Source of the DNA: a virus
Length of the DNA stretch: 35,741 nt
Direction: 5' to 3' (one strand)
IMG/VR virus record: IMGVR_UViG_3300025151_000008
Coordinates: 1 to 35,741 of that record
How positions within the stretch are numbered: the first letter of the stretch is position 1; each line of letters starts with the position of its first letter. The position numbers and the translations under genes were made by a program. Shown piece by piece: positions 14,885 through 20,435 of the stretch. The notes under the pieces were generated by a model. The model made no database searches, was not told the origin of the DNA, and saw only the letters and a list, made by a program, of their open reading frames with translations.

Positions 14885-14949
14885 CCTTGCCTTGCTATGA
14901 CCAGCGTAGCCTTGACCAGCATCGCTATGAAAAGCCTCGCCGGGCTCCG
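14885..14949. repeat. Pentamer array 1
   Basis: Thirteen consecutive 5-bp units starting CCTTG CCTTG CTATG. The fifth base is G in all 13; the first is C in 10 and A in 3. The unit contents otherwise vary, so this is a phase-locked periodicity and not a simple tandem repeat. On the minus strand the array ends GCAAGGAAAC just before the leader of the 82-residue gene. Confidence 0.85.
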
Positions 14950-14955
14950 TTTAAT

Positions 14956-15010
14956 CCTTGCCTTGACAAGCATGGTCCCGCATAGCCTAGTCAGGCCGAA
15001 GCTTGCCTCG
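14956..15010. repeat. Pentamer array 2
   Basis: Eleven 5-bp units beginning CCTTG CCTTG ACAAG; ten have G at position five. It is separated from array 1 by six bases (TTTAAT) and from array 3 by an AT-rich linker (15011-15029). Together arrays 1-4 fill most of the 365-bp gap between the genes at 14863 and 15229; I see no gene in that gap. Confidence 0.85.
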
Positions 15011-15029
15011 ATTTAAAATCCGTTTATTT

Positions 15030-15099
15030 CCTTGCCTTGTCAGGCGTTGCCTGGCCCCGAGTTGTCATGTCGCGCTCGGCCTAGTCATGCATCGCCTTG
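15030..15099. repeat. Pentamer array 3
   Basis: Fourteen 5-bp units beginning CCTTG CCTTG TCAGG; G is at position five in all 14. Units start with C, or with T/A followed mostly by C. An AT-rich linker containing TTTAAA (15100-15117) leads to array 4. Confidence 0.85.
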
Positions 15100-15117
15100 A
15101 GTTTAAATCTTTTGATT

Positions 15118-15242
15118 CCTTGCTTTGCCTCGTCCGGCCTCGTCAGGCATAGTCTCGCAGCGTCAAGCGGCGCGTCGCATGGCATTGTCAAGTCGTGCAG
15201 TGACCCGCTTCGCCAAGCCCATCCCGGCCTAGCCTGGACTCG
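15118..15242. repeat. Pentamer array 4
   Basis: Twenty-five 5-bp units beginning CCTTG CTTTG CCTCG; 24 have G at position five. The last units run into the 3' end of the 161-residue gene, whose TAG (15229-15231) lies inside the array. Confidence 0.85.
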
Positions 15243-15714
15243 GTAACTTTCTCCTTTCCCCTCGAAGCAGGACGCGGAGGCCTGCCACTCGGGCCATCGT
15301 ATCTGCATGGTCTTGGCGTTCCCGGACGTCTAGTTTCTCCATGGAGGTGTTCACTAATCGGGAGACCGCCTTTCTCATGCTCTTTTGAAGTTTGGTATGC
15401 AGAGTTTTCTCAGCATATTCTGCTTGTTTCTGAGGCTGCAGGATCCGGTATCCAATGCCCCACTCTGAGATCAAACATATCTTTTCTTCCTGGAGGAGAT
15501 ATTCCTTTAACGCTTCCATGTTCGCCATGTATGCGAGCTGGATCGTGTCGAACTTATGTTTCGGCATATCATCGAGAGGCTGCTCCAATCCCAGGGCTTC
15601 AAAAAACCATGAGTGTTCAATGATATCGTCAGCACTAAATTCCTCCTCGAGGAACTTCTTCGCAGCTTCTCTCCATGCCGGGAAGAGCTGCATCATTTCA
15701 TCTGTTTCATTCAT
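15229..15714 (-). CDS. Conserved-type phage protein of the replication/recombination module, unknown
   Basis: A 161-residue mainly helical protein. The N-terminus contains FSADDIIEHSWFFEALGLEQPLDD, followed by MANMEALKEYLLQEEKICLISEWGIGYRIL and a basic helical C-terminus. I recall this layout (a helical head with HxWFxEALG, then a GxGYR strand) from other temperate phages near Erf or SSB genes, always without a known function. Its start uses AAGGAAACA provided by array 5, and its end runs into array 4. It might be a DNA-binding regulator or an accessory to recombination. Confidence 0.6.
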   Translation of the reverse strand: MNETDEMMQLFPAWREAAKKFLEEEFSADDIIEHSWFFEALGLEQPLDDMPKHKFDTIQLAYMANMEALKEYLLQEEKICLISEWGIGYRILQPQKQAEYAEKTLHTKLQKSMRKAVSRLVNTSMEKLDVRERQDHADTMARVAGLRVLLRGERRKLPSPG

Positions 15715-15719
15715 TGTTT

Positions 15720-15784
15720 CCTTGCTTAGTCTTGTCTTGCAGTGTCAAGCAAAGCCCGGACGAGACCCGCCGAGCCCGGTCATG
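15720..15784. repeat. Pentamer array 5
   Basis: Thirteen 5-bp units beginning CCTTG CTTAG TCTTG, all with G at position five. On the minus strand its end, GCAAGGAAACA, runs directly into the ATG of the 161-residue gene, so the array edge supplies that gene's ribosome binding site. Confidence 0.85.
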
Positions 15785-15805
15785 GTCAATCTTTGAAAAT
15801 GTTTT

Positions 15806-15901
15806 CCTTGCTTAGTCGAGTCTTGCCGTAGCCTGGCCCAGACGAGCATTGCGCGGCCCAGCTAGGCAGCGCGGCGAATCGCCTAGCACTACCGTGCCAT
15901 G
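15806..15901. repeat. Pentamer array 6
   Basis: Eighteen 5-bp units beginning CCTTG CTTAG TCGAG, with a single extra base after the fourth unit (CCGTAG, 15826-15831), after which the phase resumes. G is at position five in 17 of the 18 regular units. It abuts the end of the 188-residue gene. Confidence 0.8.
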
Positions 15902-15906
15902 GTCAC

Positions 15907-16473
15907 TCAGTTCACTATTTCAAAACGTCCATACCTTGGACGGTAATCGCAGATTCCGACAAAATCCCCAGCGGTTTTGATGTAGCCCATAACGTCATTC
16001 ATGTTGAGGAGCTCATCACTGGCGAGGATCGTGAACGAGATCGCCCACTCGTGGAAGATCGGGCGGCACCGCATGATTCTTTTCTTCTGGAGAACGACCG
16101 ATCTCATATCTGAAAATTTATCACGCTGCTTCCACAATCCTTCGATATCCCGAGGACCGGAATATTCCAGTTTGATTTTCTGCTCAACGACCTGGAGACC
16201 TCGCTGAATGTTTCGGCCCATGCGGACGAACTTGGCACCGTCTCGAATCATCGCCTCGACGTTCTCACCAGGTATCACCGGACCTTCTTCATTCATGTAG
16301 AGCTGACCCTCCCACTCGAGGCGGGCGATCTGCTCAAGATCTTCGTCGGTTTTCTTTCTTTTGCCCGTCAGTTCCTTGATCTGTTTAGACAAAGGATCGA
16401 TCGGATTCGCGCACCGTTCGCTCGACATGAGCAGCGGCGTTACCCCTTTTAATTTAATTTGTTCTTTAATCAT
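15907..16473 (-). CDS. Conserved-type phage protein downstream of SSB, unknown
   Basis: A 188-residue protein, beginning with a beta strand and a loop (KLKGVTPLLMSSERCANPIDPLSKQIKELTGKRKKTDED), followed by EGPVIPGENVEAMIRDGAKFVRMGRNIQ and ending GDFVGICDYRPRYGRFEIV. I recall the same plan (GxTPLLMx, IPGENxxAxIxxGAK, GxCDxRPxYGRF) in many phage recombination modules, with no assigned role. The 150 bp between it and ssb (16474-16623) contains no convincing gene or promoter. It may form a ferredoxin-like or RNA-binding fold; that is a guess. Confidence 0.6.
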   Translation of the reverse strand: MIKEQIKLKGVTPLLMSSERCANPIDPLSKQIKELTGKRKKTDEDLEQIARLEWEGQLYMNEEGPVIPGENVEAMIRDGAKFVRMGRNIQRGLQVVEQKIKLEYSGPRDIEGLWKQRDKFSDMRSVVLQKKRIMRCRPIFHEWAISFTILASDELLNMNDVMGYIKTAGDFVGICDYRPRYGRFEIVN

Positions 16474-19000: not shown

Positions 19001-19027
19001 AGTGATATTTGATCACTTGATATCACT
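19001..19027. promoter_or_regulatory. Operator-like overlapping dyads
   Basis: AGTGATAT (19001-19008) pairs with ATATCACT (19020-19027). Inside is a third half-site ATCACT (19012-19017), which with AGTGAT forms a 17-bp site with 6-bp arms. An upstream ATATCA (18987-18992 region) adds a further weak dyad. This is downstream of the promoter and just before the integrase start, where a phage repressor would act. Confidence 0.6.
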
Positions 19028-19055
19028 TAGACGAACCCAAAATCAAGGGAAAAAA

Positions 19056-20435
19056 ATGAAAACCAAATCTCAATTCATCAAAAACTGGGTAAAAAAAGGC
19101 GGGAATCTTAAAGGTGACGAGTGGATCCTGCTTCCTAAAAATAAGCGTCAGCATAAAATTGCTGATATCAAAAATCTTCAAGCCGATGAAGTGAATATTG
19201 TCGCTCAATTCGGGAGCTGGAGAAACGGTCAGATTGTTAAAATCAGCACCGTCGCCGAGCTTGAGCAGCAGGAAAGCAAGCAGCTTTGGCTTCATCAGAA
19301 GATTGAAGAAGCTAAAAAGAATTTAAAGCCGGTTGCCTCTAAAAAATCAGCTGAACCTATTGCCGTCGATCGTTTCAGTCTCCCACTCTCCAATCTCATC
19401 CGACGTTTCAAAACTGATCACGTCAGCAAACTGAGATCAGCGCGGGATTATGAATACGCGCTCGGCCTTTGGGATGCTGAGATCGGGCATCTTCCAGTTG
19501 ACCAGGTTCATGCTACTCATATTGAAAAGTTCAAAAATGATCTGCTCAATCGCGCTCCTTCCGTTGGCACCTCCGGAAACAAAAAGCTCACCAATAAGAG
19601 TGTCAGAAATTATCTGTCAATTTTGAGTTCAGCTTTTAACTTCGGTCAGAAACTTGGCGTTGAGCTGGTGAAGCCTGGAAACAATCCGGTCAAGCTGATT
19701 GATTGGCCTGAGATCAAAGGCGAGCATGACAATAAAAGAACCGAGGTTCTGCTTCGCGGATCCGATGAGCTTACTTCACTGGTCGAGCAGCTAAACCTTT
19801 CAGAATCACGCGACCTGAAAGATTTTGTTCTCTTTGCTTTGATCACCGGAGTTCGTCAGTCTGAAGCATACGGACTGACCTGGGATCAAGTTGAATTAGA
19901 TAATGACATAATTCATCTCAGCCAAGCACTTCGCAGAAACGTCGTCGAAGGCGTTGATGAAGATGGGAATTTCATCTACAAGAAAAATGAAAACGGCGGG
20001 AAGCGGGTCATCACCAAGGGCCTCAAAAATAAAACTGATCGGAGACCAATTCATTTGAATCAGTTTCCTTCAGTGAAGAAGCTTTTAGTGAGCCGCAAAG
20101 CAGCAGCTGCAGAACGTCAGCTCGCCGGTGGCAAAGCTGAAGATCGTGTCTTCCCCCAGGATATTAAAAAAGCCTGGAATAAGGTTCTGAAACGCGCAGG
20201 CCTCCGTAAGGAAGGTGCTGGAAACAAAACCGACGATCTTGTTTTCCATACCCTCCGCCACTCGGCAGCGACCTGGCAAGTTCAGGATGGGATCCCCCTG
20301 TTTCAGGTTTCCCATTTTCTTGGACACAAGAACCTTCAATCAGTTTCCCGATACGCTCACTTCGATCCTTCCCAGGCCGAAGCGGGTGCAAGGACCGCGG
20401 AAGCTGGAGTGACCGCCGCATTCGGCGCGATCTGA
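19056..20435 (+). CDS. int: Tyrosine-family integrase
   Basis: A 459-residue site-specific recombinase that inserts the phage at the host tRNA. The catalytic set is complete: R267 (GVRQSEAYGLTW), probable K326 (GLKNKTDRR), H398 and R401 (HTLRHSAAT), H424 (FLGHKN) and Y433 (SRYAHF). The N-terminal part is an arm-binding domain followed by a SAM-like core-binding domain (DHVSKLRSARDYEYALGLWD). I chose the ATG at 19056-19058 because AAGGGA lies six bases upstream; the in-frame GTG at 19002 sits inside the operator. It should act on attP at 21635-21826. A UUCG hairpin terminator follows. Confidence 0.9.
   Translation: MKTKSQFIKNWVKKGGNLKGDEWILLPKNKRQHKIADIKNLQADEVNIVAQFGSWRNGQIVKISTVAELEQQESKQLWLHQKIEEAKKNLKPVASKKSAEPIAVDRFSLPLSNLIRRFKTDHVSKLRSARDYEYALGLWDAEIGHLPVDQVHATHIEKFKNDLLNRAPSVGTSGNKKLTNKSVRNYLSILSSAFNFGQKLGVELVKPGNNPVKLIDWPEIKGEHDNKRTEVLLRGSDELTSLVEQLNLSESRDLKDFVLFALITGVRQSEAYGLTWDQVELDNDIIHLSQALRRNVVEGVDEDGNFIYKKNENGGKRVITKGLKNKTDRRPIHLNQFPSVKKLLVSRKAAAAERQLAGGKAEDRVFPQDIKKAWNKVLKRAGLRKEGAGNKTDDLVFHTLRHSAATWQVQDGIPLFQVSHFLGHKNLQSVSRYAHFDPSQAEAGARTAEAGVTAAFGAI

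What the first reader, a model, noticed from the sequence alone, without database searches (positions are those of the whole stretch)
14885..15242. Phase-locked 5-bp periodicity (arrays 1-4): every unit ends in G
Four arrays of 13, 11, 14 and 25 pentamers fill most of a gene-free 365 bp. By hand count the fifth base is G in 61 of 63 units (13/13, 10/11, 14/14, 24/25). The first base is usually C, and units starting with T have C second. Sequence in the other positions varies, so this is neither a tandem repeat nor a CRISPR. Each array begins CCTTG and AT-rich linkers, two with a TTTAAA core, separate several of them. A 5-bp period on DNA is half a helical turn. Options: a protein-binding lattice, a structured leader RNA, an origin or packaging signal, or a selfish sequence expanding in gaps. 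I recall spurious hypothetical ORFs with this texture in other phages but know of no described function.
Basis: seen in the sequence. Interest (0 to 1): 0.85.

Follow-up and report, generated by a model that had tools for sequence, protein, structure and literature searches.

The report
Phage RNA-guided VIPR guide arrays
The odd five-base rhythm is a set of guide RNAs of a recently described CRISPR-like weapon (VIPR) that phages use against rival phages, and here one guide spells out the active-site region of the integrase that rival phages need to insert into host genomes.

Summary
In detail: lag-5 autocorrelation is 0.436 against 0.264 in shuffles (z 7.1), and 61 of 63 units end in G. Read on the coding (minus) strand, nearly every unit starts with C, and two more arrays lie outside the given coordinates. 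The arrays flank a 188-aa gene (15907-16473) that matches PDB 36pp, "SUSP1 Vipr protein" (E 3e-30). Its model has the Cas7/Csm3 RAMP fold. The next gene (15229-15714) is homologous to the gene after vipr in phage SUSP1. This is therefore a type II-like VIPR locus (Viral Interference Programmable Repeat; preprint PMC13142463, 2026). The arrays are vrRNAs whose NN dinucleotides pair with target DNA, skipping one base per unit. A blind scan for five-base arrays in IMG/VR found Vipr homologues beside 68 of 86 array loci, against 0 of 114 control loci. Decoding gave one solid result: vrRNA1 spells the integrase catalytic box (Y-C/W-HDLRHSAASYLVM) with skips at codon wobble positions, and its changes between relatives are synonymous or conservative for that peptide (p 0.0003). 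The phage's own integrase is not matched. Differences from the published consensus: only C is near-invariant (GG in about two thirds of units), and the tail is short and AT-rich. New member of a known kind.

The parts
15907..16473 (-). vipr gene (188 aa, PHROG 4652): RAMP protein that would bind the vrRNAs
   Evidence: phmmer to PDB 36pp 'SUSP1 Vipr protein' E 3e-30; AF2 model pLDDT 96.2, top structural matches all Csm3/Cas7 subunits, Z up to 10.6
15785..15901 (-). vrRNA1: 15 pentamers (15901-15827), a one-base slip, CAAGA CTCGA CTAAG CAAGG, then an AT-rich tail; decodes to the integrase catalytic box
15720..15784 (-). vrRNA2: 13 pentamers ending CTAAG CAAGG AAA; the CAAGGA is also the ribosome-binding site of gene 15229-15714
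   Evidence: target search inconclusive
15229..15714 (-). vap1-like accessory gene (161 aa, PHROG 5926), predicted DNA-binding with a weak winged-helix match
   Evidence: profile of this family finds the gene after vipr in phage SUSP1, E 6.8e-30; AF2 pLDDT 86.6; Foldseek best E 0.055, SaeR DNA-binding domain
   Evidence: tentative target a D5_N/DUF5906 primase-helicase
15100..15117 (-). AT-rich linker/tail after vrRNA3 (AATCAAAAGATTTAAACT)
   Evidence: conserved in the clade
15011..15029 (-). AT-rich linker/tail after vrRNA4 (AAATAAACGGATTTTAAAT)
19002..20435 (+). the phage's own tyrosine integrase (box HTLRHSAATW), not matched by vrRNA1 above chance
   Evidence: Pfam PF00589; best place for guide 1 anywhere in the window only 18 of 30

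Best explanation
This is a VIPR locus of a temperate phage: vipr (15907-16473), a vap1-like gene (15229-15714) and about six vrRNAs (15901-14885), all read on the minus strand. By the published mechanism, several Vipr subunits (RAMP fold, like Cas7) coat each vrRNA. The fixed bases of each pentamer are held by the protein, and the two variable bases (NN) pair with double-stranded target DNA with one target base skipped per unit. Binding blocks transcription of the target gene in a competing phage or prophage. Here vrRNA1 is most likely aimed at the integrase gene of rival temperate phages, at the codons of the catalytic H-x-L-R box; the skipped base falls on the wobble position, so synonymous changes there do not help the rival escape. 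Shown here: arrays, strand, gene linkage, protein family and fold, vap homology, decoding of guide 1. Inferred: transcription, RNP formation, DNA binding and repression in this phage, and the biological purpose. Confidence is for the VIPR assignment; for the integrase target it is about 0.8.
For: Protein: E 3e-30 to the solved SUSP1 Vipr; Csm3/Cas7 fold; vap1 homology E 6.8e-30. Linkage: a DNA-only scan of viral contigs gave 86 array loci, 68 with a Vipr homologue at a median 4 bp from an array; 0 of 114 control loci have one. Strand: where the triplet is GGC or GCC in the vipr sense, GGC 99 and GCC 4. Published RNA unit YNNGG with 3' tail, 1-nt skip code. Constraint: between the window and L002, C1 changes at 2.6% and positions 2-4 at 18-20%, against 10% at fourfold sites of the neighbouring genes. 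Guide 1: 12 of 14 viral hits of its 8-unit 1-nt-skip core fall in HDLRHSAA-type boxes, two confirmed by Pfam as phage integrases. In a pool gathered without reference to the guide (2.57 million residues, 11 integrase-like boxes) the two best places are integrase boxes (z 6.7 against shuffled guides). Changes of this guide in L002 and L003 are synonymous or conservative in the decoded frame (6 unique changes, p 0.0003; opposite strand p 0.63).
Against: No RNA data for this phage. No full-length exact target was found; the best place for guide 1 matches 24 of 30 bases. The repeat is looser than published: GG in only about two thirds of units, and position 4 evolves as fast as NN. The tail lacks the stable structure reported for SUSP1. 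Guides 2, 4 and 6 gave hits at about chance level. The general wobble-phase excess is not independent of guide composition, and a skip-length test on a small pool was inconclusive.
Confidence: 0.95

Rival explanations
1. VIPR locus, but in this clade the guide uses three variable positions per unit (C-NNN-R), or the relaxed arrays are decaying and partly non-functional.
For: Position 4 changes as fast as positions 2 and 3, and GG is present in only about two thirds of units.
Against: C1 stays near-invariant; arrays number 5 to 10 per genome in relatives; guide 1 drifts only within the meaning of an integrase peptide when positions 2-3 are read; G remains the commonest base at positions 4 and 5.
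Confidence: 0.15
2. Protein-binding DNA lattice (half-turn period) for an early phage protein, for example an origin or partition site.
For: Five-base phasing; a DNA-binding-like accessory gene nearby.
Against: Strong strand asymmetry (GGC 99, GCC 4), adjacency to a RAMP-fold gene, guide-like meaning of the variable bases, and experimental vrRNAs in the homologous SUSP1 locus.
Confidence: 0.02
3. Selfish or slippage-driven pentanucleotide expansion without function.
For: Array number and length vary between close relatives.
Against: Two or more positions are free while one to three are fixed over hundreds of units and distant phages; slippage would copy whole units. Arrays sit beside Vipr in 68 of 86 blind loci.
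Confidence: 0.01

Closest known systems
VIPR type II, Escherichia phage SUSP1 (PMC13142463; PDB 36pp; GenBank KT454805)
   Same: Homologous Vipr (about 33% identity, E 3e-30), homologous gene directly after vipr, several vrRNA arrays of five-base units with NN variable, arrays upstream or downstream of the genes, same strand as the genes
   Different: Unit C-NN-(G)-R with only C near-invariant instead of Y-NN-GG; short AT-rich tail without predicted stable structure; arrays of 10-25 units in the clade instead of 9-16; temperate phage
VIPR-like loci in Pseudomonas phages (LESphi2; P. fulva prophage of the preprint)
   Same: LESphi2 Vipr is 45% identical and its GGCNN arrays lie upstream of the gene; a vap1-like gene follows
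   Different: LESphi2 arrays keep GG in most units and have longer GC-rich segments between arrays; P. fulva itself was not examined here
Type III CRISPR Csm3/Cas7 (RAMP) backbone
   Same: Same fold as the modelled Vipr (Z 10.6); Cas7 also spaces guide bases periodically (every sixth base, as cited in the preprint)
   Different: No CRISPR repeats or other cas genes seen; unit of five bases; non-contiguous guide; sequence identity about 10-14%

Membership tests
VIPR (PMC13142463) | Vipr protein, a minimal RAMP homologue | tested here: met
   E 3e-30 to PDB 36pp SUSP1 Vipr; Csm3/Cas7 fold of the model
VIPR (PMC13142463) | Adjacent vap gene (type II: predicted DNA-binding) | tested here: met
   Window gene 15229-15714 matches the SUSP1 gene after vipr, E 6.8e-30; weak winged-helix structural match. 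That this SUSP1 gene is vap1 is inferred from its position.
VIPR (PMC13142463) | vrRNAs of 9-16 tandem YNNGG units (or a related consensus) in intergenic regions of the locus | tested here: inconclusive
   Tandem five-base units with NN variable are present, C1 in 76/77, but G at positions 4 and 5 is only about 66-68% in the clade and lengths run 10-25. Fits 'a related consensus'; the preprint's fig. S17 could not be read.
VIPR (PMC13142463) | Invariant, structured 3' tail on the vrRNA (SUSP1 clade: pseudoknot) | tested here: inconclusive
   A conserved short tail like CAAGGAAnCAAAAGATTTTAAAC exists but folds no better than shuffles in most cases; the preprint says array architectures differ between types.
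VIPR (PMC13142463) | Non-contiguous target code with 1-nt skip, targets in competing elements | tested here: inconclusive
   Guide 1 decodes to the integrase catalytic box, which supports it; other guides gave no clear target and no exact full-length target was found.
VIPR (PMC13142463) | vrRNAs expressed and bound by Vipr; dsDNA binding and repression | not testable with these tools
   Needs sRNA sequencing, pull-down and reporter assays.
CRISPR-Cas | Direct repeats separated by unique spacers, with cas genes | tested here: not met
   No Rfam CRISPR repeat near gathering score; units are five bases with no spacers; the two proteins of the locus hit no cas family in Pfam, NCBIfam or PADLOC.
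Simple tandem repeat | Whole unit copied | tested here: not met
   45 different pentamers among 77 units.

The most novel reading that the evidence does not exclude
A VIPR subclade with a relaxed repeat (only one fixed base per unit) that uses its first guide against the catalytic core of integrase genes of rival temperate phages. The guide itself is kept by selection to follow the rival's codons: between three relatives it changes almost only in ways that leave the decoded integrase peptide the same or similar (Leu TTN to CTN, Ser TCN to AGN).
Probability: 0.65. Interest if true: 0.68.

Novelty: new member of a known kind. Interest (0 to 1): 0.58.

Why it matters
It is an independent recovery of VIPR from raw DNA texture, without the protein. 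It shows that five-base arrays alone lead to Vipr loci in IMG/VR (68 of 86 array loci, with fixed triplets GGC, CGC, GGT, GAC, GCA and others). Decoding one guide gives a concrete, testable target, the integrase of competing prophages, which ties VIPR to the control of who may integrate. The synonymous-like drift of the guide is evolutionary evidence that the 1-nt-skip code with wobble skipping is used in nature outside the systems tested so far.

Tried and rejected
Whole-region periodogram at exactly 5 bp: weak because linkers break phase. Skip-length test (0-3) on a 4.4 Mb local pool: no clear difference, several top hits low complexity. Guide 2 core: 11 hits, one cluster in large terminase genes (VNKRDPDR motif, 20 contiguous guide bases), but other proteins fit as well, so no target is claimed. 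Guide 3 cores: hits in D5_N/DUF5906 primase-helicase proteins resemble the decoded peptide (FFDGNTFKHDAMGDFL against decoded C/W-F/L-D/E-G-T-T-F/L-K/N-H/Q-D/E-A-F/L-A-D/E-Y-L) but flanking base matches (14 of 30) are weak. Guide 4: hits in several unrelated proteins, one a D12 adenine methyltransferase. Guide 6: nothing consistent. Guide 5 was not searched. Wobble-phase excess over all guides: shuffled guides show a similar bias, so it is not used as evidence. Decoded peptides against PHROGs: no hits. Rfam: nothing at gathering score in the window region or in 15 array loci, so the hammerhead-interspersed arrays of the preprint were not seen here. Literature search on pentamers or 5-bp periodicity found nothing relevant; the link came through the PDB name 'Vipr'. 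No sigma-70 promoter or terminator signal above chance.

Full report
WHAT WAS CLAIMED AND WHAT IS THERE. The count is exact. Autocorrelation at lags 5, 10 and 15 is 0.43-0.44 against 0.26 in shuffles, z about 7, and phased runs far exceed Markov shuffles. The window is a 35.7 kb virus record of a temperate phage with portal, terminase, internal virion proteins, Erf-type annealing protein and tyrosine integrase. Its genes around the arrays run on the minus strand. On that strand the unit is C-N-N-(G)-R, with C in 76 of 77 units. Two further arrays lie just outside the given coordinates (15901-15806 and 15784-15720), so there are about six arrays around two genes.

RELATIVES. The gene upstream of the arrays (15907-16473, PHROG 4652, no name) was used to fetch relatives. 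Relatives at 87-99% identity have arrays in the same two gaps, but with different numbers of array modules, each ending CAAGGAA plus an AT-rich tail. More distant relatives (L009, L011, 43-47% identity) have clean GGCNN arrays at the same junctions.

A DNA-ONLY SCAN LEADS TO ONE PROTEIN. A strict detector (two or more fixed and two or more free columns, no 10- or 15-base repetition) found arrays in 86 of these 120 loci and none in 607 kb of Markov sequence. Arrays in one phage generally share one fixed triplet; between phages it differs (mostly GGC, also CGC, GGT, GAC, GCA). A profile from the 188-aa protein finds a homologue in 68 of the 86 loci, at a median distance of 4 bp from the nearest array, but in none of 114 viral loci fetched by unrelated patterns. 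In the sense of that gene the triplet reads GGC 99 times and GCC 4 times, as expected of an RNA.

IDENTITY. phmmer against the PDB gives entry 36pp, 'SUSP1 Vipr protein', E 3e-30; LESphi2's homologue gives 1.8e-41. The preprint PMC13142463 (bioRxiv 2026.04.26.720920) describes VIPR: a small RAMP protein, vrRNAs of 9-16 YNNGG repeats with a 3' tail, pairing of NN with dsDNA by a 1-nt skip, transcriptional repression, targets in satellites and prophages, seven types. A structure model of the window protein (pLDDT 96.2) has the Csm3/Cas7 fold. The gene between the array groups (15229-15714, PHROG 5926) is homologous to the gene after vipr in SUSP1 (E 6.8e-30), the position of vap1 of type II, and its model resembles winged-helix DNA-binding domains weakly. 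The locus is therefore VIPR, closest to type II.

WHAT DIFFERS. In this clade (516 units in five genomes) C1 is 96%, but G at positions 4 and 5 is only 66-68%. Between the window and L002, C1 changes at 2.6%, positions 2-4 at 18-20% and position 5 at 13%, while fourfold sites of the neighbouring genes change at 10%. Arrays run from 10 to 25 units. The tail is short and AT-rich and mostly does not fold better than shuffles. The preprint allows 'a related consensus', so this is not claimed as a new type.

DECODING. Cores of eight NN units (16 bases) with 1-nt skips were searched in viral contigs. For vrRNA1, 12 of 14 hits encode the tyrosine-recombinase box HDLRHSAA, read antisense with skips at the wobble position; two were confirmed as phage integrases with Pfam. 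The full 15 units decode to Y-C/W-H/Q-D/E-F/L-R-H/Q-S/R-A-A-S-Y-L-V-I/M, a typical integrase stretch. In proteins gathered before any guide search (2.57 million residues, 11 box-like places) the two best-scoring places are integrase boxes, z 6.7 against shuffled guides, and the guides of L002 and L003 behave alike. Six unique changes in this guide between the three relatives are synonymous or conservative in the decoded frame (mean BLOSUM 2.17, p 0.0003) and not on the opposite strand (p 0.63). The phage's own integrase (HTLRHSAATW) is not a target: the best place for the guide anywhere in the window matches 18 of 30 bases, as unrelated places do; the best foreign place matches 24 of 30. So vrRNA1 most likely represses integrase genes of rival temperate phages. 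Other guides gave only tentative leads (terminase, primase-helicase, adenine methyltransferase), and the overall wobble-phase excess did not survive a shuffled control.

VERDICT. This locus is a new member of it, with a relaxed repeat and a decoded target. Transcription, RNP formation and repression in this phage are inferred from the homologous SUSP1 system, not shown.

Noticed in passing
L013, L018, L025, L035, L038, L057, L060, L063, L064, L071, L089, L095, L118, L119 and a few others: 18 viral contigs have five-base arrays but no detectable Vipr homologue in the stretch held. Some arrays lie at contig ends, but L095 has five nnGTT arrays over 3 kb and may carry a very divergent Vipr or another partner.
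   Followed up: no
L254 (Listonella phage phiHSIC) 5602-5883: The annotated ORF21 of phiHSIC overlaps degenerate nnGCA arrays beside a Vipr homologue (ORF22) and is probably a spurious gene call.
   Followed up: partly
L252 (Pseudomonas phage LESphi2) 4569-4896: GGCNN arrays upstream of a Vipr homologue (P21_9) followed by a vap1-like gene (P21_8) in a P. aeruginosa Liverpool epidemic strain prophage.
   Followed up: partly
L008 4560-5100: This relative (51% identical Vipr) has an AT-richer pentamer texture of the GGANN type instead of GGCNN; its repeat rule was not worked out.
   Followed up: no
L040 and L116: Two of the few loci where the detected triplet reads GCC rather than GGC in the vipr sense: antisense arrays or a detector artefact.
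   Followed up: no
window 15826: vrRNA1 has a one-base slip (extra G) before its last four units CAAGA CTCGA CTAAG CAAGG. The slip is conserved in L002 and L003, and vrRNA2 ends with nearly the same four units without the slip, so these may be a constant 3' handle rather than guide.
   Followed up: partly
Genome-contig loci, e.g. L138 (Fibrobacteres MAG), L186 (Alphaproteobacteria MAG), L215 (Dokdonella fugitiva), L238: Cellular genomes, probably in prophages, carry the same arrays with Vipr homologues; many other GGCNN hits in actinobacteria are plain tandem repeats.
   Followed up: partly
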